This document shows positions 13,690 through 25,128 of a DNA stretch of 43,018 nt, piece by piece. The stretch lies in NCBI GenBank assembly GCA_003152165.1, contig PLZO01000087.1, positions 1 to 43,018 on the forward strand, read 5' to 3'. Numbering within the stretch: position 1 is the first letter of the stretch; the number at the start of each line of letters is the position of its first letter. Position numbers and translations under genes: made by a program. The stretch is from Chloroflexota bacterium (GTDB lineage: Bacteria; Chloroflexota; Limnocylindria; Limnocylindrales; CSP1-4). The notes under the pieces were generated by a model. It did not search any database. It was not told where the DNA came from and worked only from the letters and a program-made list of their open reading frames with translations.

Positions 13690-14322
13690 CTACGTGTCCT
13701 TCTTCGTGGTCGGCTTCGGCGCCGGCTTGGCCGGGGCCTTGGTCGCGGCCTTGGCAGCGGGTTTGGCAGTTGTCTTGGCGGTTGTCTTGGCGGTTGTCTT
13801 GGCGGCCGGTTTGGCCGACTTGGCCGCGCTGGCCTTCGAGGCAGCGCCGGTTTCGGATTTGGCGTCCGGCTTGGGGGCGTTGCGGGCGGCCAGCTTGGCG
13901 GCGAGCGCGGCGTCCTCGGCAGCCTGGCGCTTGGCGCCCTCTTCGAGGCGCTGGCGCTCGGTCCTGGCGTCGGACTGGGCCTTCTCGAGCGCGGCGGCTG
14001 CGCTCTTGCCGTTCAGCACGACATCGGTGATTCGAAGCAGCAGGAAGTCCTGGCGATGACCCTTCTTCACCCGGCGGCGGGCCTTCGGGCGGTACTTGAA
14101 CGAGATCACCTTGGGGGCGCGGTCCTGGCGGACGACCTCGGCGCTCACCGATGCCCCGGCGACGAGCGGTCGGCCAATCGAGGCCTGGTCTCCGTCGGCC
14201 ACGAGCAACACGCGATCGAGGGCGACCGACTCGCCCGTGCCGGCGTCGAGCAGCTCGACCTCGAGCTCCGTGCCGACCTCTACGCGGTACTGCTTCCCGC
14301 CGGTCTCGATGACTGCGTACAT
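13690..14322 (-). CDS. rplU: 50S ribosomal protein L21 with ~100-aa Lys/Ala-rich C-terminal extension
   Basis: L21 core [25 protein letters not shown]...[27 protein letters not shown], then low-complexity [38 protein letters not shown]. Confidence 0.95.
13769..13804. repeat. 3 x 12-bp perfect tandem repeat (gttgtcttggcg) encoding the KTTA repeat of L21
   Basis: Direct reading of three consecutive identical 12-mers. Confidence 0.92.
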
Positions 14323-14412
14323 GGATCCTCAGATGTGCGGGCCGACCGAGTCCGGCGACCGCTTACGATTAGACATGGGACGACGCCCAGACGGATCCGG
14401 GCGCGAACCGGC

Positions 14413-14442
14413 AGTGTACGGCTGACCCGCTCCGAGCGTCAA
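14413..14442 (-). promoter_or_regulatory. Sigma70-type promoter candidate for rplU-rpmA-rpmE operon
   Basis: Minus strand reads TTGACG-18 nt-TACACT, ~90 nt upstream of the rplU start. Confidence 0.6.
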
Positions 14443-14516
14443 CCGGCACAGGAGAAGGGAGATAAGGGCCTCGGATCTGTCGCGAACCCGGACGCGGCGA
14501 CGGACGAGTCGGCCGC

Positions 14517-16502
14517 CTACTTGCTCGGCCTGGAGGCTGTCGCGATGCCCCATTCGCCGCCGTGCACAACGCCCACCAGTGCACGGTTTGGGCCTTTGGG
14601 CGCCTTTGTGACGCGCACCTCCCCACCCGAGGTCATCAGAAATTCGCCAGCGGCGTGTCCTGACTGGGTCAGGAGATCGAGATGAACCAATCCCGCGGCA
14701 CCGAGTCCTAGCGCCTTTCGTGCGTCGAGCGGGACGGTCAGATGGCCAGTCGGCGGCGTGTCTCCGACGAAGAGCGTCACCGGCAAGGTGGTCCAGCAGA
14801 CTCTTATGAGCAGGTGCAATCAACTCGTCGGATAGTCGTACCGCCAGTCCGACCGTCACCACCCACGTCTCGAGTGTGCGCACGTCGAGCTCTGGCCCAT
14901 ACCCCTCGCCCCGCAATGACCTGACCACCGACACGCCGAGGCGGCGAAATTCTGCAGGTGTGAGATGTAGCTGCTGTCCCGTCAGCCACTCGAGGGCGTA
15001 TTCCTCTAATGTGATCCGCCCAAGAGGGCCATCAACAGGACCTCCGTGGCCAGTGTCACGCATGATTAGGAGCGATACGTACGCATTGATGAGTGACGAC
15101 TCAGTGGTAGGCAGCTGCCCGGTCGCCATCTTGGCGCCTCGGATTAAACCGAGCATGAGGGGATTCCGCGCGAGCGTCTGAAGAGCCTCAGGCAATCTCC
15201 AAGGCGGCTCGTCCAGAACGACTTCAATCTGCTCGTTTCCGAGGGGCTGGAGATGCAGATCGGTCCAATCCGCGAAGGACTTGGGTACACGGGCCGGTCG
15301 GGTCGTCAGGACAACCTGCAAGGCAGCGTGGATCATGGCAAATTCGGCCACCTCTCGCTCAGCCCTGTCCCTAGCGGCGGCCGGGACTTCGTCCATTCCA
15401 TCCAATACGAGGAAGGCGCTAGGCCGCCGCAGCAACGACTCCACCTCGGCGCTGGAGGGTTGGCGTTTGAGCGCCCGCGCCATCTCGGCTCTGATTACCG
15501 ATGCCAGATCTGTCGCCCAAGCGCCGAGCCGACGTGGAGGCCCTCTCGGCCCTGTTCCAGCCAAGACCGCGCCATGTCAGCGGCGATTCTGCTCTTTCCA
15601 GAGCCATGGGCGCCGATGAGAACGGTTCGTCGGGGCATTGCGGCGAGGTTCAGCGGTTCGCCGTCCGCAAATCCGCCGCCAGCGACCCTGCGATCGAGCT
15701 CAGGGAGTTGCGCGATATCGAGTCGCCGCAACCTAGTCTCAACCTCGTCAGCGTATGCCTGTCGATCGGGGATAGCCGCCCATCGGGATGAGATGAGTGC
15801 GATGCCTGCATCCAGCAGGGTCTGTCTGAGCGTCAGTCGGGAGATACGACGGCGAGCGATGGCGCTCGTACGCACAAGACGGAGGACTGGATCTACGGCT
15901 ACTGCCGGGTCGCCTACGAGCCCTTCGAGTCGTTGCTCGAGCTGGGAACTTAGATGTGACGGGTCCCCTATATTGTCGCGCACATTGATCGATGCGAACA
16001 AGCTAAGGGCTTCATTTCGATCGATCTTGAGGTGGTTGCGGCACGAGGCCACAAAGGCAACACCATCTGCCCGGAGGCGTTTGTCCCATTCGACAAGCGC
16101 CAGGTCGACGGCCTCAACGTGGTCTGTGGCAATGCCGTCAGCGTTCGCCTTGGAATCTCGGGCGCGCTGCGCCGCCTCGCGCAGTTTCCGGGCACTCGAA
16201 CTAGTGACAAGAAGAAGGGACGCGTCTGGCGTCGACCTGTGCTGTTTCAATAATTGATCGAGAACGCCCTCGCGTGCGAGTGTTGTCGCAGTCCATTCGG
16301 CGCCTGGCGAAAACTCCTTTACCTGCGCGTACGTGTCTGCGGTTGTGGCCCGCTGAACCAGAATGTCGTCGACGTCGGCAAAGGCCTCCGGCCACACGCC
16401 TAAGACGTCGTCGTTGCGGGCCATTTCTGCCACGTCAAGGGCGGCGACGAGGTCTTGGTAGCGGTAGCCAGAGTCCCCGGCCGGTCTTCCTGGCTCCGGC
16501 AT
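14517..16502 (-). pseudogene. Frameshifted STAND NTPase: N-terminal DUF4297/Cap4-like nuclease + NACHT-type NTPase
   Basis: 15495..16502: GYRYQDLVAAL...ADVDDILVQ...TYAQVKEF (PD-(D/E)xK-like) then Walker A VLIGAHGSGKSRIA. The next frame (ORF to 15564) carries GAWATDLASVIRAEM...AFLVLDGMDEVPAAA (NACHT Walker B), NPLMLGLIRGA. After ~14790 the original frame gives VTLFVGDTPPTGHLTVPLDARKALGL...WGIATASRPSK*. Two apparent frame changes. Confidence 0.65.
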
Positions 16503-16868
16503 CTTCTCGCCTCTCTATTTGTCAACCCTTGGACCAGGTCGACTTCCAGTCTAGGTTCGCGCCGGGCCGCGCGGGTCACCCGATGACGCAAATGGGTGTC
16601 CGGATCCCGGACTCCAAGGGCCAAGACCGGTCGCGGCATCTTGCCCTCTACGCCCGGCCATCGAGAAATCGGTCAGGACTGCTCGACGGCAGTTCGGCCC
16701 AGTGCTCTGGAGCGGGATTAATCGGTTGGACTCAGAAAGAAGCTATCGGACGTAGGGTTGGGCCATTGCTGGGGCGTCCTTGTCCGCCACGATCAGCCGC
16801 AGACGATCTCCATAGGCTGCCGAGACCTCAACCAACAGCTCGCCGTCGTGAGCCTGAGTGACCCGTAC

Positions 16869-17105
16869 ATGACCACGCCAGAGGCTGCCGAGCCCTGTTC
16901 TGGTTGTGGCGAGGAAACGGCGGCTGGCAGCGTCTTCTTCTCCGATCGTCACGCGATCGAGCAGGCGGATGGGCGACGGGCCTACCTCTGCGCCCTCTGC
17001 GACTCGCGTATTCGATCGTCGCGCAAGGGCAGGCCGCTGACGGCCCAGGAAGTCCGAAGCATCGTCGAGAACGGCTCGGCGATCGCCCTTACGTGGCGGC
17101 CCTGA
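16869..17105 (+). CDS. Small zinc-ribbon-like protein
   Basis: MTTPEAAEPCSGCGEETAAGSVFFSDRHAIEQADGRRAYLCALCDSRIRSSRKGRPLTAQEVRSIVENGSAIALTWRP: two CxxC pairs. Confidence 0.5.
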   Translation: MTTPEAAEPCSGCGEETAAGSVFFSDRHAIEQADGRRAYLCALCDSRIRSSRKGRPLTAQEVRSIVENGSAIALTWRP

Positions 17106-17176
17106 GTCATTAGCGGGCTCAAAGGCAAGAAGAACGCCACACGATGGGTGGATCGTGGTGCTCAGCGGCCGCCTGC

Positions 17177-18031
17177 CTACTCCACGTGCAGCCGGTTTGG
17201 GCTCTTACCTCTACTGCCGCGAAGGGCGGCGGCCCACGCGGCCGCGACGGCCATGGGGATGATCGGGAGAAGCTCAGCACCCATTGCGGGCGCTTCGAGC
17301 GACACTGCAACGCCGAGCCAGACGCTGGCGGCCACGGCGAACGCCATGGCGACCACGCCAACGCGCCCCAACATGACACACAGGCGGGGGACGGTTGGAT
17401 TCGGCGCGGCGTGCCTGACCAGCCGCGCAAGGCACGCCGCTCCGACGGCCCACCCGAGGAGGGCCATCAGCATGAGCACGCCGCTTGGTCCGGGCTCAAT
17501 GTAGGACCCGATCCCGGCGGCGCGAACCAGCCCGACGAAGGCTGCGCATGCGAGGAGCGCCACGGCGAGCGGGGCAAGGAGCCCTCGACGTGGCTGTCCC
17601 TGATGCAGTCGGGCCGACGCCAGGAAGAGGAACGCGCCGGCCATGATCGCGAGCAGGCCGACGGCGCCCGCAGCTTGCACGAGCCGGATCGCGAGGCGCA
17701 CGGCGGGGAAGTCGGCTCCGTACCCGTCCGAGGAGCGCCAACGCACGCTGAGGACCGCCGCCCAAGCCAGGGCGAAGACCACGGACGCCAGCAGCATCGA
17801 GCCGAGGCCCGACCGCAGATGCGCCGATGACGGGAGCGCATCCGCGGGACCGAGCTCCCGGTGACGATGGGCGTCGAGGGCACTGACCCCCAGGTTGAGG
17901 ACGGTCGACACCGTGACTTGGTGCTGATCGAGAACATCCTCGAGCTCCGCGCCGTAGCGGGCTCGCCAGGCACTGGGGTAGAGCGACAGGACGAGTCGGG
18001 ACGTTGGGCGAAGCACGCCACGCGGTCTCAT
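17177..18031 (-). CDS. Multi-TM membrane protein with N-terminal LYPxxWRxRYGxEL segment
   Basis: LVLSLYPSAWRARYGAELEDVLDQ followed by several hydrophobic helices; overlaps upstream PadR gene by 4 nt. Confidence 0.75.
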   Translation of the reverse strand: MRPRGVLRPTSRLVLSLYPSAWRARYGAELEDVLDQHQVTVSTVLNLGVSALDAHRHRELGPADALPSSAHLRSGLGSMLLASVVFALAWAAVLSVRWRSSDGYGADFPAVRLAIRLVQAAGAVGLLAIMAGAFLFLASARLHQGQPRRGLLAPLAVALLACAAFVGLVRAAGIGSYIEPGPSGVLMLMALLGWAVGAACLARLVRHAAPNPTVPRLCVMLGRVGVVAMAFAVAASVWLGVAVSLEAPAMGAELLPIIPMAVAAAWAAALRGSRGKSPNRLHVE

Positions 18032-18354
18032 GAACGTACCTCCAGCGAAGTCCGATCCACTCGTTGTCGCGCGGTGACCACGACCCGTTCCATCGTCGCG
18101 AGCCGTGCCTCGAGGACGCAGTGACCCGAGGGCGTCAGCGCATACGGCCGACGTCGGCCGGCCGGCTCGAGCGCGATGATCAGACCCTCGTGTTCAAGGC
18201 GGGCGAGAGCCCCGTACAGTGTGCCCGGCTCGAACCGCACACTGCTGAAGCGATCGATGTCCTCGAGGATCCCATACCCGTGCTTCTCGCCGCCAGCGAG
18301 GCTGGCAAGGATCAGCAGGCCTGGGTCGGACAGCCGTCCAAGGTCGTTCCCCAC
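18028..18354 (-). CDS. PadR family transcriptional regulator (copy 1)
   Basis: GTG start 18354; LSDPGLLILASLAGGEKHGYGILEDIDRFSSVRFEPGTLYGALARLEHEGLI...GRRRPYALTPSG. Confidence 0.88.
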   Translation of the reverse strand: MGNDLGRLSDPGLLILASLAGGEKHGYGILEDIDRFSSVRFEPGTLYGALARLEHEGLIIALEPAGRRRPYALTPSGHCVLEARLATMERVVVTARQRVDRTSLEVRS

Positions 18355-18377
18355 CTCATCACCCCAAACTCGGTCTG

Positions 18378-18388
18378 ACTTAGTAAGT
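18378..18388. promoter_or_regulatory. Inverted repeat acttaGtaagt upstream of PadR copy 1; operator candidate
   Basis: Perfect 5-bp arms around a single central G, ~24 nt upstream of the chosen GTG. Confidence 0.4.
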
Positions 18389-18438
18389 AACACTGAGTAT
18401 AGCGTGGGTCGATCTGGCGTCAATGGCCAGGTCATCAG

Positions 18439-18987
18439 TTAGCGTGAAACGATCAGGACCGCCGGGACGACGATCAGGACCGCGAACGCACAGATGACCG
18501 CGATCAAGCCAACGGTCAAGGCAAGTCGACGCAGCAGACGGACGAACAGGACGAGATCGGTTCGCAGCCAGGCCCTGTTTCGGAGCCGCCATCCGAGCGC
18601 GACGACACCGAGGACCAGGGCCGCGCCGGATCCAGCCGCGATGACGAGCCCGCGCTCGATGAATGGTTCCATCCCGGGTCGTGTAGCTGACCCGGCGCCG
18701 AGGATGGCCTGATTGACCAGGAGCTCTTTCGCTCCGGCTGCCGCCAGGACGAAGAGACCGGTGACGATCGCGGTGAGCGCAAGAAACGCGCTCGCCGCCT
18801 GAATCCGACGGGTGGATAGCATCGGTTCCTCCAGTGTGGATGCGAGATGAGCCCCGAGTGCGCCAGTGAGCACGTCGAGGACGAGGCTCAGCGAGAACGG
18901 CTCGTCGTCGAGGAGCGCCTGAAACTCCTCGCCGTAGCGGCGCCGCCAGCGCTTGGGATAGAGGCGGGTTAGGGAGGATCGGCGCAT
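18439..18987 (-). CDS. Multi-TM membrane protein with N-terminal LYPxRWRxRYGxEF segment (paralogue of 17177..18031)
   Basis: LTRLYPKRWRRRYGEEFQALLDDEPFSLSLVLDVLTGALGAHL plus about three TM helices. Confidence 0.75.
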   Translation of the reverse strand: MRRSSLTRLYPKRWRRRYGEEFQALLDDEPFSLSLVLDVLTGALGAHLASTLEEPMLSTRRIQAASAFLALTAIVTGLFVLAAAGAKELLVNQAILGAGSATRPGMEPFIERGLVIAAGSGAALVLGVVALGWRLRNRAWLRTDLVLFVRLLRRLALTVGLIAVICAFAVLIVVPAVLIVSR

Positions 18988-18992
18988 CGCGG

Positions 18993-19310
18993 TCAGGAGC
19001 TCGTCGCGAGGCGCGCCAGCCCCGCGTCGGCGAACTGGCGGAACGCGGCCAGTTGGTTTGCGAGCACCGTGCGCCCGAGCGCCGTTAGGCGGTACGGGCG
19101 ACGCAGCTCCTCGGTTGGGAGGGGCTCGATGAGCGCCTGCTCCTCGAGTCGATGGAGGGCTCCGTAGAGGGTACCGGGCCCCAGGTGGAGCCCGATGAGG
19201 CGGTCGATGTCCGCGATCATTGCGTGGCCATGTTTCGGGCCGCCGGCTAGGCTTGCGAGGATGAGCAGCCCAGGCTCCGGTTGGCCTCGGGCGCCGGGAC
19301 GGCGTGGCAT
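18993..19310 (-). CDS. PadR family transcriptional regulator (copy 2)
   Basis: MPRRPGARGQPEPGLLILASLAGGPKHGHAMIADIDRLIGLHLGPGTLYGALHRLEEQALIEPLPTEELRRPYRLTALGR. Confidence 0.88.
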   Translation of the reverse strand: MPRRPGARGQPEPGLLILASLAGGPKHGHAMIADIDRLIGLHLGPGTLYGALHRLEEQALIEPLPTEELRRPYRLTALGRTVLANQLAAFRQFADAGLARLATSS

Positions 19311-19337
19311 CGGGACTCCTCTGCTGACGGCATGATC

Positions 19338-19351
19338 GTAGTACGTACTAC
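19338..19351. promoter_or_regulatory. Perfect 14-bp palindrome GTAGTACGTACTAC upstream of PadR copy 2; probable operator
   Basis: Self-complementary sequence ~27 nt upstream of PadR ATG; flanked by further GTAG/CTAC half-sites (ctacatcgtag). Confidence 0.65.
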
Positions 19352-19842
19352 ATCGTAGCACGTAGGTAAGCTTCGTCAACCGGCGTCGAGATTGGTTCGC
19401 CACAGGGTTAATTGCCAGCTGCCGCGGCAGCGGATGGCATTCCCAGGGCCGCGACACCGCCGCTACCGGTGAGGCGACCAACGTAGCAGCCTTGGTCCTA
19501 CTACCGCCTGTTGCCGTGGCCGCGAGCGCTAGAACGACTAGCGCCACCACGATCGCGACAAGGATGACTTTGCTTCCGCGCGAAAGGTGCTTCCACCACG
19601 ATCCCATGCGACCAATCACTTGCTTGCCTCTAGGGGTTCATTCCACTCGACCCCGCCCGCATGGCGGGCCGGCTCATCTCTTCGAGTCAAGCTACGAGAG
19701 GCGGCGCCTTGGGGAAGCGCGGATCGACGACTAGATATGGTCTCTGAAGATGTTGTTCGCAAACGACGACCGCGCGGCACGGTGGGAGCTGTTGAGTGCC
19801 AAGGCCGGTCGGAGGCTCTCGTAGCACACGCTAATGCGCCTC

Positions 19843-20016
19843 TCAGAGGCCGGCGACGACAACCATGGAGCTTGGCGCGATGACCACGAACGCGGGGATC
19901 GGCACCAATAGGTTGATCGCCGCCGCGATCGCACCGATGTCGGCGCCCGCATTGAGGGTATTGGCGACGACGAGCGCCAGGCCGGCCGGATAGGGTCGCG
20001 AAGAGTGATGCCTTCG
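19843..20016 (-). pseudogene. Remnant of Nramp-family metal ion transporter
   Basis: Minus strand: RPYPAGLALVVANTLNAGADIGAIAAAINLLVPIPAFVVIAPSSMVVVAGL*; VANTxNxGADxGA is a characteristic Nramp TM segment, but the rest of the protein is absent. Confidence 0.6.
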
Positions 20017-20307
20017 TGGGTCCGACCCTGAGATGGCACCGGCACGCCTGACGGATCCCAGCCGCCCTGTCGTGCCCGCTGTCCGTCGCGCCATTGCCAG
20101 CGACCTCGAGGGTTCAGCTCCTGATTTGATGCTCCCAGCCTCAGGCAATCCGAACCCGGCTAATTGGCGCGACTTTGCAATGCGCAGGACCCGCTCGGGC
20201 GTCCACCGACGACATCGCGGGTGGGATCGTGGGCCGGAAGCGCAAGCTCGCGCGACCCACGATTGGAGACGGCGATTACTGACCATCGCACGTTCGAACA
20301 CAAGACC

Positions 20308-20565
20308 GTGACGACCGACACGAATGCTGCGCCGAGTAGCACGACCCAGACGCTCGAGAAGGGCGTCCATCATGGTGACGAGGAAGCCGGCGGCACCGTA
20401 GCCGGCGGGATCGGCGGCGCACTCGTCGGAGCCGTCGTCGGCGGCCCGGTCGGGGCCGTCATCGGCGGCGCGGTCGGCGCGGCGTCCGGTGCCACGGCCG
20501 GCGCTCTCGACGACAAGCGCAAGGACGAAGCGGTCGTCGTCACGAAGGAAGAAAAGACCTGGTAG
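20308..20565 (+). CDS. Glycine-zipper small protein
   Basis: VTTDTNAAPSS...EEAGGTVAGGIGGALVGAVVGGPVGAVIGGAVGAASGATAGALDDKRKDEAVVVTKEEKTW; start uncertain (GTG 20308 chosen). Confidence 0.6.
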   Translation: MTTDTNAAPSSTTQTLEKGVHHGDEEAGGTVAGGIGGALVGAVVGGPVGAVIGGAVGAASGATAGALDDKRKDEAVVVTKEEKTW

Positions 20566-20593
20566 CTCATCCATGGCAACCGACTCGAGACCA

Positions 20594-20624
20594 CTACCCG
20601 CTGTGCACGGCGAGCAGCGGGTAG
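20594..20624. terminator. Hairpin with perfect 10-bp stem (ctacccgctg / cagcgggtag), terminator-like without U-tract
   Basis: Read directly; lies between the glycine-zipper gene stop (20565) and the next small ORF (20665). Confidence 0.45.
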
Positions 20625-20664
20625 CCTTCGCCGTTCGCGGCTTCTCAGCAGGAGCTCACATCCA

Positions 20665-20742
20665 ATGACCATCGGAACCATCGTCATCGTCGTCGTGATC
20701 GTCCTGGTCGTGCTCTTTGTTCTCGGGCGCGGCAGGCTCTAG
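20665..20742 (+). CDS. 25-aa single-TM small membrane protein
   Basis: MTIGTIVIVVVIVLVVLFVLGRGRL* with upstream aGGAG; not in ORF track because of length cut-off. Confidence 0.4.
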   Translation: MTIGTIVIVVVIVLVVLFVLGRGRL

Positions 20743-21751
20743 ACCGGGCCCGAGCGAGGCAACAACGTTGGCCGCACCGCCCACGTTTGGCCGGCCCGGC
20801 ATCACCCGGGTCCGAATCGCGAGTCGTGTGCGCTATCGCGCATCCGAGGGGGAGTGGATCGTCGATCCGGTCGTCCTGGACCGAATCCGGAGCCTGGCGG
20901 TTCCGCCCGCATGGACCGACGTCTGGATCTCCGAGCAGCCCGGGGCACGGCTCCAGGCGACGGGCCGCGACGCCCGCGGTCGAAAGCAGTACCGCTACGC
21001 TGACGCCTTCCGTCGATCTCGCGAGGCCGACAAGTTTGCCGCCCTGGCTGATTTCGGGCGGGTGCTGCCGCGCCTCCGGCGGCGTGTTGATCGCGACCTG
21101 CGCCGGCGCGGACTCCCCCGCGAGAAGGTCCTGGCGACCGTGGTCGCGATCCTCGAGGCAACCCGGATCCGGATTGGCAATCGCGAGTACGCCCAAGCCA
21201 ACCACTCATACGGCCTGACGACGCTCCGTCCGCAGCAGGTGATCGTCGAAGGCGGCACCGTCCGCTTCGTGTTCCGCGGGAAATCTGGCCAACGCCATCG
21301 GATCGTGCTCGAGGACCACCGGCTGGCCAGGATCGTCGCCCGGTGCCGGGCGGTGCCGGGTCAGGATCTCTTCCAGTACGCCTCCACAGATGGAACCTGG
21401 CTCCCGATTCGGTCTGACGATGTCAACGGGTACCTGCGCGACGTGACCGGCAGCGACATCACGGCCAAGGAGTTCCGGACCTGGTCCGCGTCGGTCCTCG
21501 CGCTGGCGCTACTGCGGGCGGGCAGCGAGCCGGCGGTGGCCGGCCGGAGATCGGTCCTCGGTCGCGCGATCAGGACCGTGGCGGAGGGACTCGGCAACAC
21601 CCCGATCGTTTGTCGGACGTCGTACATCCACCCCCGCGTGATCTCGGATTATCTGGCTGATGATCTCGACGTCGCCCCAACCCGCCGCGGCATGGGCTGG
21701 CTCTCTGCGGATGAGCGTCGATTGGTCGCCCTGCTCGAACGGGCCGCCTGA
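20717..21751 (+). CDS. DNA topoisomerase IB (poxvirus/bacterial type)
   Basis: ITRVRIASRVRYRASEGEWIVDPVVLDRIRSLAVPPAWTDVWIS...GRDARGRKQYRYADAFRRSREADKF...RIRIGNREYAQANHSYGLTTL...TAKEFRTWSAS...NTPIVCRTSYIHPRV (catalytic Tyr). Start uncertain (TTG 20717 or 20768). Confidence 0.92.
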   Translation: MFSGAAGSRPGPSEATTLAAPPTFGRPGITRVRIASRVRYRASEGEWIVDPVVLDRIRSLAVPPAWTDVWISEQPGARLQATGRDARGRKQYRYADAFRRSREADKFAALADFGRVLPRLRRRVDRDLRRRGLPREKVLATVVAILEATRIRIGNREYAQANHSYGLTTLRPQQVIVEGGTVRFVFRGKSGQRHRIVLEDHRLARIVARCRAVPGQDLFQYASTDGTWLPIRSDDVNGYLRDVTGSDITAKEFRTWSASVLALALLRAGSEPAVAGRRSVLGRAIRTVAEGLGNTPIVCRTSYIHPRVISDYLADDLDVAPTRRGMGWLSADERRLVALLERAA

Positions 21752-22245
21752 GTCTGGCGCCAAAAGCCGGTGGGCAGCGGCGGAGACCTGTGGCGGGCGG
21801 CCTGGAAAGGCAGCAGACGACCGGGTGACCCATGGGCGCGGCGCCAGTAGGCGCATTGCCCGCGGATGTCTGCGCGACGTGGACATACCCCGAGTCAGTC
21901 CTGGACTCCTCAGTTTGGCGTCTGGCGACATCGTCGAGGGTGTCCCCTACGCCCCGGCCAGCAAGCCGGCGGTCTTGGTCCAGGCTGCGTCGGACCTTGG
22001 GCTTGGTATCCACGGCCGCGGGACCGACGGCCTCCAGGCGGGCGAGCTCGCCGGAGAACGTCGATTGGGCGGGTAGGACTTCGGTCCGAGCGGCGCGCAA
22101 AAGGACCGAGGGCCGTCCGTGCGACCGGGGTCGGTCCGAATCACGATACGAATGCAACATTCCGATCGATCCCGCTCCTGCTCCGCAAGGCTCGACCTCG
22201 CAGACTTCGTTCATCCGATTGTGGGCGTGAACCACCGAGGTTGCG

Positions 22246-22779
22246 ATGTCTGACGACGCACGAGCGCTCAAACGGCGGGCGGCGAGGCCGCCCGCCGTGG
22301 TCAGAGAGATTCTCGAGAGGCAGACGAATGAGTCTGCCGAATTGCTGGAGGCCACGGTCGGTCGAGCGTTCGGGGGCGATGTGACCAACCTCGGCCGGTT
22401 CGTCTCCACGTTGACGCCTGTCTTGCCGGCGGGCACCAAGATCTTCCTGCGGGGTAGCTCGGTGACGGGTCAGAGCTATGTCTCGGGCGAGCTGTTCGAC
22501 GCGCACGGGCCCGGGTCGAGCGACCTCGACATCGTCGTGAGTGGCGACGAGGTCATGAACCTGTTCTCGGGCGATGGGTTCTATTGTCCGCGAGTCAATA
22601 GTCGACCGCTGTGCGATACCGATCGGGACGTGGCGCCGCTCCTCGACAAAGCCCGGTCGGAATCCCAGGCATTGGTCGGCCGACCAGTGAGCATCCAGGC
22701 CATGGCCGAGTGGTTCCTGGACCTTCGGTCTGCGGCCCAGCAAACGCCGGTCATCCAGCTCGGTCGCGTGCCCTGGTGA
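22246..22779 (+). CDS. Nucleotidyltransferase-fold protein
   Basis: IFLRGSSVTGQSYVSGELFDAHGPGSSDLDIVVSGDEVM: GS...(S)DLD catalytic pattern of the NTase superfamily. Confidence 0.65.
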   Translation: MSDDARALKRRAARPPAVVREILERQTNESAELLEATVGRAFGGDVTNLGRFVSTLTPVLPAGTKIFLRGSSVTGQSYVSGELFDAHGPGSSDLDIVVSGDEVMNLFSGDGFYCPRVNSRPLCDTDRDVAPLLDKARSESQALVGRPVSIQAMAEWFLDLRSAAQQTPVIQLGRVPW

Positions 22780-23540
22780 CGTTGCGCGTCGCCAGCTACA
22801 ACCTCCGCTTCGGAGGGATTGGGCGAAAAGCGGCCATCAGTGCGTCGCTCGCGAGCCTCCAGCCAGACCTCGTCATCCTGCAGGAGGCGACGGACCAGCC
22901 GACGGTGGAATGGATTGGCCAAAGGCTTGGTCTGGATCACGTCGTGGTCGGATCCGGACGATCGGTGGCGGCTCTGAGCCGGCAACCGCTGGATTCGGCC
23001 TGGCATGAGATTGGCTTGGGTCGCAGCGCGCTTGAACTCAAATTCAGGCTGCGGGACTTCCGGATCTTTGGAGTTCATCTGTCGGCCGGCCTATCCCAAC
23101 GAGGCGAATCGCGACGCATGGTTGAGGTCTCGCGGCTGCTGGGTCAGATCGACGCCAGCGGCGGCGGCGAACGGACGATGATCGTCGGCGATTTCAACGC
23201 GATCGCTCCCGGCGACGGCCCTCTGATGCGACGGCTGCCGTTGTGGATCCGCATCCTGCTTCGCTTTGATGGCGGGATTCGAACCGAGGCGATGAGCTCG
23301 ATCGCGGCTGGCGGCTTCGCCGATGCGTTCCGACTCCTCCATCCGGATGATCCCGGCTTCACGATGCCATCGACTGAACCGAGCGTTCGTCTCGACTACA
23401 TCATGCTCGGCTCCGGCATTCGCCCACTTCTCAGATCGTGTGAGCTGATGAACGCTGGACGCGAGAGTGCTCTGGCAACGGACCACCTCGCGGTTCTGGC
23501 AGAGCTGGGCCTGGGCGAGGGGTTGGAGCAGACATTCTGA
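22776..23540 (+). CDS. Endonuclease/exonuclease/phosphatase (EEP) family protein
   Basis: GTG start at 22776 overlapping previous stop (GTGA); LRVASYNLRFGG, LVILQEATD, MIVGDFNAI, RLDYIMLGSG, ALATDHLAVLAEL. Confidence 0.9.
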   Translation: MTLRVASYNLRFGGIGRKAAISASLASLQPDLVILQEATDQPTVEWIGQRLGLDHVVVGSGRSVAALSRQPLDSAWHEIGLGRSALELKFRLRDFRIFGVHLSAGLSQRGESRRMVEVSRLLGQIDASGGGERTMIVGDFNAIAPGDGPLMRRLPLWIRILLRFDGGIRTEAMSSIAAGGFADAFRLLHPDDPGFTMPSTEPSVRLDYIMLGSGIRPLLRSCELMNAGRESALATDHLAVLAELGLGEGLEQTF

Positions 23541-23750
23541 TTTGGACGCCAGTTGGGCGGCAAGCCTTTTGGGCCGGAGTTGATCCATGTCTGGCCGGAG
23601 CCGCCTGGCGCCGTTCGAGCCATGAGTCTGGGATTCTAAAGCCAGAAGGCGACACCACCTACAGGATGGCGACAACGATGCGCCCGTACCTCGTCGGGCG
23701 ATCCGTCCTCGGGGCAGGGGCATCTGGACGAGCGCAGGTGGCAAGGCGCC

Positions 23751-23837
23751 TCGCCCTTCACCTGGGTCAAGACCCCTGACGAAGTCCTGGCCAAGGCGGT
23801 GCGCAAGCCGCAAGCCACTTCAGGCGCGGGGCACTAG
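23751..23837 (+). pseudogene. C-terminal remnant of IS630-type transposase
   Basis: SPFTWVKTPDEVLAKAVRKPQATSGAGH* resembles the conserved C-terminal PFxWTKTxDEVLAKAxRK... tail of IS630-family transposases; no upstream DDE domain found. Confidence 0.5.
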
Positions 23838-23913
23838 AGGGCACCTCCCCGTGATGTCTGGGACAATTGGCCCGATGGGGCGATGGTCGCCCTCGACAAA
23901 GGAACCTTGATCG

Positions 23914-24144
23914 ATGCTTCAGTCTCAGTCACCCGTGATCTACGTCGAGCGGCGGCACAGCCTCTTCCATGGCTCGCTGACCCTCCTGCTCGTGCTGTGG
24001 GCGATTGCCCTGCCTGCCCTGCTTCTGCTTCTCACCGCATTCGGGCCGATCGGCTGGCTCGTGGGGGCCGGCGTCGGGATCCTGCTCGCGGTGCCGTGGC
24101 TTGTGGGTCTCGGCATCCTGTGGTTCCTGCGCCACATCGCCTGA
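23914..24144 (+). CDS. Small two-TM membrane protein
   Basis: MLQSQSPVIYVERRHSLFHGSLTLLLVLWAIALPALLLLLTAFGPIGWLVGAGVGILLAVPWLVGLGILWFLRHIA. Confidence 0.55.
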   Translation: MLQSQSPVIYVERRHSLFHGSLTLLLVLWAIALPALLLLLTAFGPIGWLVGAGVGILLAVPWLVGLGILWFLRHIA

Positions 24145-24375
24145 CAGGTCTCAGACCCGGGACCTAGCACCCGGGGCGAATAGGCAGGGGTGATCGTCGG
24201 CGTGACCATGTGAGGGTGATTTCGACCAACCCGGTTGCTGTGGGTCCTCAATGACGCGGGCCTGTACCACCTGCTCGTTCACCAGCGTGGCTGGCCCCAG
24301 GAGCAGTTCCAGACGTGGCTATCGGCCTCGATGCGGGCTCAGCTCCTCGGCACGCAGGAGTAGGCCGGGAACAGG

Positions 24376-24756
24376 TCAGCTGGCGCCGGGAACGGGTCCC
24401 TCGCGCAGGCCGAAGACATTGCCGTCGGGGTCCTTGAACCAGGCGCCCCGGGCGGGCCCGATCTGGGCGATGAAATTGACCGTCTTCGGCGTCTCGTATT
24501 CCTCGAAGGTCACACCGCGGGACATTAGGTCGGCCATGACCGCGTCGAGATCGGCAACCTCGAAGTGCCCGACGGTCTGGCCCACGTTCGGCTGGCCACG
24601 ACGCACGGAGACCTGGCCGCCGCGACCCGCGCCGAACCGGATCGCGAACGGCGCCTCCTCGAGGATGGGCAGGTTGAGCTGCTCGCCGAAGAACTTCTTG
24701 GCGCGTTCGAGGTCCGTGACCGCGACGGTCGTGACCAGCAGCGAGTCGGATAGCAC
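24376..24756 (-). CDS. VOC (glyoxalase/bleomycin resistance) family protein
   Basis: GTG start with agaggtggg upstream; TTVAVTDLERAKKFFGEQLNLPI...VGHFEVADLDAVMADLMSRGVTFEEY...ARGAWFKDPDGNVFGLRE. Confidence 0.9.
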   Translation of the reverse strand: MLSDSLLVTTVAVTDLERAKKFFGEQLNLPILEEAPFAIRFGAGRGGQVSVRRGQPNVGQTVGHFEVADLDAVMADLMSRGVTFEEYETPKTVNFIAQIGPARGAWFKDPDGNVFGLREGPVPGAS

Positions 24757-25128
24757 GATCCCACCTCTGTTGAACGGATGCCCAGACCGGTCAATCGTAG
24801 TCCGACGGTGAGCCGTCCGGCGCGCTGGGCGATGTCGGGGCGTGCACGCGGCCCCGACAAAGCGCCACGAAGGGCGGCTTTCGCCGAGTCCTGCTCCGGC
24901 GCTGCTCACGAATTTAGCCCGAGCCACGCTCAAGGCAGCATGGATCGGGCCGTCCTCGATCCGCCTGCCGGCCCGCGAGGTCCCAGACGGCTCGAAGGAG
25001 GCCGTTTGTCGCGCCGGCTGCACGGGTCGACCGAGGGTCGAACGCCGGCCTTGGGGCCCGTGCTCGCGCCTGAGGTTCCTGCGCCGCCAATACATCGCGG
25101 TCAAGACGCGGATCCGCTCAGCCCGGGA

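What the first reader, a model, noticed from the sequence alone, without database searches (positions are those of the whole stretch)
14517..16502. Frameshifted DUF4297/Cap4-like nuclease + NACHT STAND gene: candidate anti-phage defence protein
Sequence shows one minus-strand coding stretch: PD-(D/E)xK-like N-terminus (GYRYQDLVAAL...DDILVQ...YAQVKEF), Walker A (GAHGSGKS) and, in another frame, Walker B (FLVLDGMDEVP) and NPLMLGLI. Established knowledge: nuclease-NACHT/STAND fusions (Avs-like, DUF4297/Cap4 effectors) are anti-phage sensors. The continuity is broken near 15510-15560 and again near 14790, and the second change restores the first frame. This could be a pseudogene, two indel errors in the assembly, or programmed recoding. 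I see no obvious slippery heptamer.
Basis: partly seen in the sequence, partly recalled or inferred. Interest (0 to 1): 0.7.

Follow-up and report, generated by a model that had tools for sequence, protein, structure and literature searches.

The report
Broken remnant of nuclease-NACHT defence gene
The stretch is the decayed front half of a bacterial immune-type gene (a DNA-cutting domain joined to a NACHT switch) that has lost its sensor half and its reading frame in this genome, so it is most likely an ordinary pseudogene; a complete copy exists in a related Chloroflexi genome.

Summary
On the minus strand, 16502-15531 (frame A) encodes a Cap4-type nuclease plus Walker A, and 15528-14782 (frame B) continues the same NACHT protein with Walker B. 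An uninterrupted 1021-aa homologue in a same-family Chloroflexi genome (L003; E=9e-95, 38% identity) aligns residues 1-312 with frame A and 314-555 with frame B: one gene, one frame break at 15531/15528. The homologue has no break and there is no slippery site, so recoding is very unlikely. The "second frame change" near 14790 is not a frameshift of this gene: homology ends at 14782, and the homologue's last 466 residues (the expected sensor half) are absent from the window and from the rest of this genome. The frame-A piece downstream (14517-14819) is unrelated to the homologue; most of it is a ~252-bp sequence present once more in the genome beside sufB. The gene lies in a ~10-kb variable region just upstream of the rplU promoter. 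Best reading: a horizontally acquired nuclease-NACHT (bNACHT-like) defence gene, truncated and frameshifted, probably non-functional. Known kind, low interest. The intact relative sits in a mobile neighbourhood with ubiquitin-like conjugation genes.

The parts
15531..16502 (-). Frame A: Cap4-type nuclease (Pfam match at residues 9-106, ~16478-16185), linker, start of NACHT with Walker A GAHGSGKS (15614-15591); ATG at 16502
   Evidence: PF14130 E=6.5e-8; LmuA/HamA nuclease models; aligned to L003 residues 1-312, 37% identity
15528..15531 (-). Frame break: the gene passes to frame B, one base short relative to the intact homologue
   Evidence: tblastn with L003: HSPs end at 15531 (L003 V312) and restart at 15528 (L003 L314); no slippery heptamer or homopolymer of 4 or more
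14782..15528 (-). Frame B: remainder of NACHT with Walker B FLVLDGMDEVP (15414-15382) and downstream helical part NPLMLGLI ... HKSLLDHLA
   Evidence: aligned to L003 residues 314-555, 37% identity; weak NACHT PF05729 match, E=0.025
14781..14782 (-). End of homology: truncation point; L003 residues 556-1021 have no counterpart in the window or in genome G000
   Evidence: L003 C-terminal query finds nothing in G000
14454..14705 (.).
   Evidence: 87% over 255 columns; two copies in G000 and no full-length copy in 30 relatives
14442..14446 (.). Left boundary of the variable region, at the -35-like TTGACG of the rplU promoter
   Evidence: conserved DNA in three same-genus genomes ends at 14442, 14444 and 14445; promoter-like boxes read from sequence
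13690..14322 (-). rplU (ribosomal protein L21), intact host gene downstream
   Evidence: matches in 38 of 41 related genomes

Best explanation
It is a pseudogene: the 5' 54% (555 of 1021 residues) of a horizontally acquired single-gene STAND-type defence protein. An intact member would be an N-terminal Cap4-like PD-(D/E)xK DNase, a central NACHT ATPase and a C-terminal sensor. By analogy with studied bacterial NACHT nucleases, the sensor would detect infection, NACHT would oligomerise with ATP, and the nuclease would cut DNA (inferred, not shown). Here the sensor half is gone, the remaining 5' part abuts a repeat and the rplU promoter region, and a frame break between Walker A and Walker B separates the nuclease from most of the ATPase. 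The translated product would be a ~335-aa nuclease plus P-loop fragment. Shown: domains, frame break, truncation, site boundary. Inferred: loss of function, defence role of the ancestor.
For: One uninterrupted 1021-aa homologue spans both frames. The missing C-terminus is not elsewhere in the genome. The downstream frame-A ORF is unrelated to the gene and mostly a repeat. Conserved genes on the same contig (SHMT, HAD-like hydrolase, PrmC, PrfA, DUF1385-like protein, L31, L27, L21, FtsW, GyrB) lie in single frames, so indel noise is low. Local GC falls to ~61% against 68-71% in flanks, the DNA is absent at this place in same-genus genomes, and no relative turned up in 177 class genomes apart from G429 and a weak NACHT-only genome. 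The homologue lies between two tyrosine integrases.
Against: The 324 + 249 homologous codons contain no other stop, and the nuclease, Walker A and Walker B residues shared with L003 are kept. So the decay is recent, or selection lasted until recently. There is only one full-length homologue at 38% identity, so a shorter natural variant without the C-terminal domain cannot be strictly ruled out. The genome is ~92% complete, so a displaced C-terminal piece could in principle be missing from the assembly.
Confidence: 0.82

Rival explanations
1. The frame break is an assembly or sequencing indel, and the cell makes a shortened but working nuclease-NACHT protein ending near 14782 or slightly beyond.
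For: No further stops in 573 codons and catalytic motifs retained; the genome is a draft assembly in 177 contigs.
Against: Conserved genes on the contig are unbroken. Past the homology, frame B runs through a repeat and the rplU leader to 14329 with no natural end. The C-terminal 466 aa are absent, so sensing would be lost.
Confidence: 0.12
2. Programmed -1 recoding joins frame A to frame B, giving two products from one gene.
For: The change is in the -1 direction and both frames carry conserved sequence.
Against: The homologue has a single frame at the same place; no slippery heptamer; no Rfam family match at E<=1 over 14200-16800.
Confidence: 0.02
3. Two separate functional proteins: a nuclease/P-loop protein (frame A) and a second protein (frame B).
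For: Each frame is a long ORF: 15495-16502 (335 aa) and 14329-15564 (411 aa).
Against: The split falls inside the NACHT ATPase between Walker A and Walker B; the homologue is a single chain; frame B ends in non-coding DNA.
Confidence: 0.03

Closest known systems
bNACHT25/bNACHT32 (bacterial NACHT clade 6, PMC12169576)
   Same: N-terminal PD-(D/E)xK DNase effector (there D48A abolishes defence; here D45/D46 of the shared VDDI motif), central NACHT, C-terminal sensor in the intact relative
   Different: No NCH1 or other Pfam match in the C-terminal half of L003; clade placement not tested; the window copy lacks that half and is frameshifted
L003 / DAHXON010000018.1 (Chloroflexi bacterium isolate clean318, collection record without annotation)
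   Same: Homologous over the whole window remnant, same domain order
   Different: Intact at 1021 aa, no frame break, sits between two tyrosine integrases near Prok-E2_D, JAB and ThiF genes
Avs3 / AVAST type III (DUF4297-STAND)
   Same: Same kind of layout as recalled from own knowledge: Cap4/DUF4297-type nuclease followed by a STAND ATPase
   Different: No PADLOC Avs model matched window or L003; Avs proteins are much longer with TPR-like sensors (own knowledge)
LmuA (Lamassu) and HamA (Hachiman) nucleases
   Same: Closest PADLOC models to the nuclease domain: LmuA 2.3e-8, HamA 2.6e-7
   Different: Those are separate proteins working with an SMC-like or helicase partner (own knowledge); here the nuclease is fused to NACHT and no such partner was recognised among neighbours scanned

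Membership tests
Cap4-type (PF14130) nuclease | Pfam score above the curated cut-off | tested here: met
   33.5 bits vs cut-off 26.2, E=6.5e-8, residues 9-106
Cap4-type (PF14130) nuclease | Conserved D...QxK active-site motif | tested here: met
   VDDI and QVKE shared with L003; catalysis itself not testable
Bacterial NACHT (bNACHT) defence protein | Central NACHT with Walker A and Walker B | tested here: inconclusive
   Motifs present but in different frames; PF05729 sub-threshold in each part (E=0.1 and 0.025); L003 5.2e-5, 23.6 bits vs 26.7; genome-wide PF05729 search gave no hit at E<=0.001
Bacterial NACHT (bNACHT) defence protein | C-terminal sensor domain | tested here: not met
   Absent from window and genome; present as 466 aa without Pfam match in L003
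Bacterial NACHT (bNACHT) defence protein | Anti-phage activity | not testable with these tools
   needs expression and phage challenge of the intact relative
Avs3 / AVAST type III | Match to PADLOC Avs models | tested here: not met
   none at E<=1 (window) or E<=0.1 (L003)
Functional gene | Uninterrupted reading frame over the conserved domains | tested here: not met
   break at 15531/15528
Programmed frameshift gene | Slippery site and conservation of the shift in homologues | tested here: not met
   no heptamer; L003 in one frame
CBASS Cap4 effector | SAVED domain and CD-NTase neighbour | tested here: not met
   no SAVED match in window pieces or L003 and no such neighbour among ORFs scanned

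The most novel reading that the evidence does not exclude
The intact relative L003 represents a new, rare subfamily of nuclease-NACHT immune proteins with a previously undescribed ~466-aa C-terminal sensor, carried on integrase-flanked elements with ubiquitin-like conjugation genes in Chloroflexi; the window holds its dead copy.
Probability: 0.35. Interest if true: 0.35.

Novelty: new member of a known kind. Interest (0 to 1): 0.17.

Why it matters
It shows that a naive scan or a spliced in-silico protein would overcall a defence system here: the gene lost its sensor half as well as its frame. The useful by-products are an intact relative in DAHXON010000018.1 that could be tested, and a variable site just upstream of the rplU promoter in this genus.

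Tried and rejected
Structure prediction of L003 with the window pieces: mean pLDDT 37.5, pTM 0.27, too poor for a fold search, so none was run. Search for more relatives: genome contigs returned only L003's own record, viral contigs none, phages and plasmids only distant NACHT parts. PDB sequence search: only spurious low-complexity hits to TAL repeats and unrelated proteins. Identity of the downstream frame-A ORF: no Pfam, PADLOC or NCBIfam match, and weak hits at chance level; the two best (L065, L085) were inspected, L085 being antisense to a substrate-binding-protein-like gene. Substitutions between its two copies favour third codon positions (14 of 24), so it may once have been coding, but of another gene. 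tRNA-associated integration: no tRNA found. Link between the C116 recombinase-like fragment and the L003 integrase: no match.

Full report
What is there. The window is a whole contig (43018 bases) of a 3.6-Mb draft genome in 177 contigs; the record of its intact relative, from the same family, is labelled Chloroflexi. On the minus strand, frame A is open from ATG 16502 to a stop at 15495, and frame B from 15564 to 14329. Frame A carries a Cap4-type nuclease (PF14130, E=6.5e-8, above cut-off) and the NACHT P-loop; frame B carries the Walker B side with only a weak NACHT match (E=0.025). PADLOC's nearest models are the nucleases LmuA and HamA.

One gene, one break. A search of 400 genomes of the phylum found one strong relative, G429:C99 (L003), an uninterrupted ORF whose ATG gives 1021 aa. 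The same record is DAHXON010000018.1, Chloroflexi bacterium isolate clean318. tblastn with it covers the window in two pieces: residues 1-312 at 16502-15531 and residues 314-555 at 15528-14782, both 37% identical. The pieces are adjacent but in different frames, one base short of a codon. There is no slippery heptamer and no homopolymer of four or more around the junction, and the homologue reads through in one frame, so programmed recoding is not supported.

The second change is a truncation. Homology to L003 stops at 14782. The remaining 466 residues of L003 are not in the window nor elsewhere in this genome assembly. The stretch 14454-14705, which covers most of it, recurs once in the same genome, at C116:777-1029, beside sufB and the end of a frame that reads like a tyrosine recombinase (GTEVSRYLGHSSTDVTRRYAR; read by eye). 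Return to the starting frame is one of two possible outcomes of a frame change, so it is weak evidence.

Setting. DNA shared with three same-genus genomes ends at 14442-14445, at the -35-like box of the rplU promoter. In G002 only ~0.65 kb separates rplU from the glyoxalase-family gene that in the window lies ~9.9 kb away (24376-25104); in G001 the gap is ~4.8 kb and holds other genes. The insert is poorer in GC (about 0.61 against 0.68-0.71). The gene is rare in the class: only G429, plus weak NACHT-only matches in one other genome, among 177. Together this indicates horizontal acquisition. The intact relative sits between two phage-type integrases, downstream of Prok-E2_D, Prok-JAB and ThiF genes, a mobile and probably defensive neighbourhood (the defensive part is inference).

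Is the break real? Conserved genes of the contig checked against relatives or Pfam, including SHMT, PrmC, PrfA, L31, L27, L21, FtsW and GyrB, are in single frames, so indel errors are not common here. One isolated error cannot be excluded without reads. Even then the protein would lack its C-terminal half.

Mechanism. Bacterial NACHT proteins have an N-terminal effector, a central NACHT and a C-terminal sensor; bNACHT25 and bNACHT32 carry a PD-(D/E)xK DNase whose D48A mutant loses defence and DNA degradation (PMC12169576). The intact relative fits that plan: shared VDDI and QVKE motifs, Walker A and Walker B. The window copy keeps the effector and switch residues but not one frame and not the sensor, so it is most likely inactive. 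No further stop codons have accumulated, which suggests recent decay.

Verdict. A decayed member of a known kind (nuclease-NACHT/STAND defence gene). The sensor half of the intact relative has no Pfam match and no relative in 400 phylum genomes; that is the only part with some novelty.

Noticed in passing
window 14454-14705; L079 (G000:C116) 777-1029: A ~252-bp sequence occurs twice in this genome, each time ~100-130 bp upstream of a housekeeping gene start (rplU, sufB) and next to a truncated gene; mismatches between copies favour third codon positions of the minus-strand frame.
   Followed up: partly
window 14446-24373: Variable region between the rplU promoter and a glyoxalase-family gene: ~9.9 kb here, ~0.65 kb in G002, ~4.8 kb in G001, with different contents.
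   Followed up: partly
window 17177-19619: Two consecutive pairs of a PadR-type regulator and an unassigned, apparently membrane protein; the two PadR genes are related (69% over 123 bp).
   Followed up: no
L056 2829-12040 (G429:C99): Prok-E2_D, Prok-JAB, ThiF, AAA ATPase, integrase, nuclease-NACHT and a convergent integrase in a row: a mobile island with ubiquitin-like conjugation genes.
   Followed up: partly
L053 6758-7900 (G001): Fic-like protein (HPFRDGNGRMAR motif, read by eye) in the same variable region upstream of rplU in a same-genus genome.
   Followed up: no
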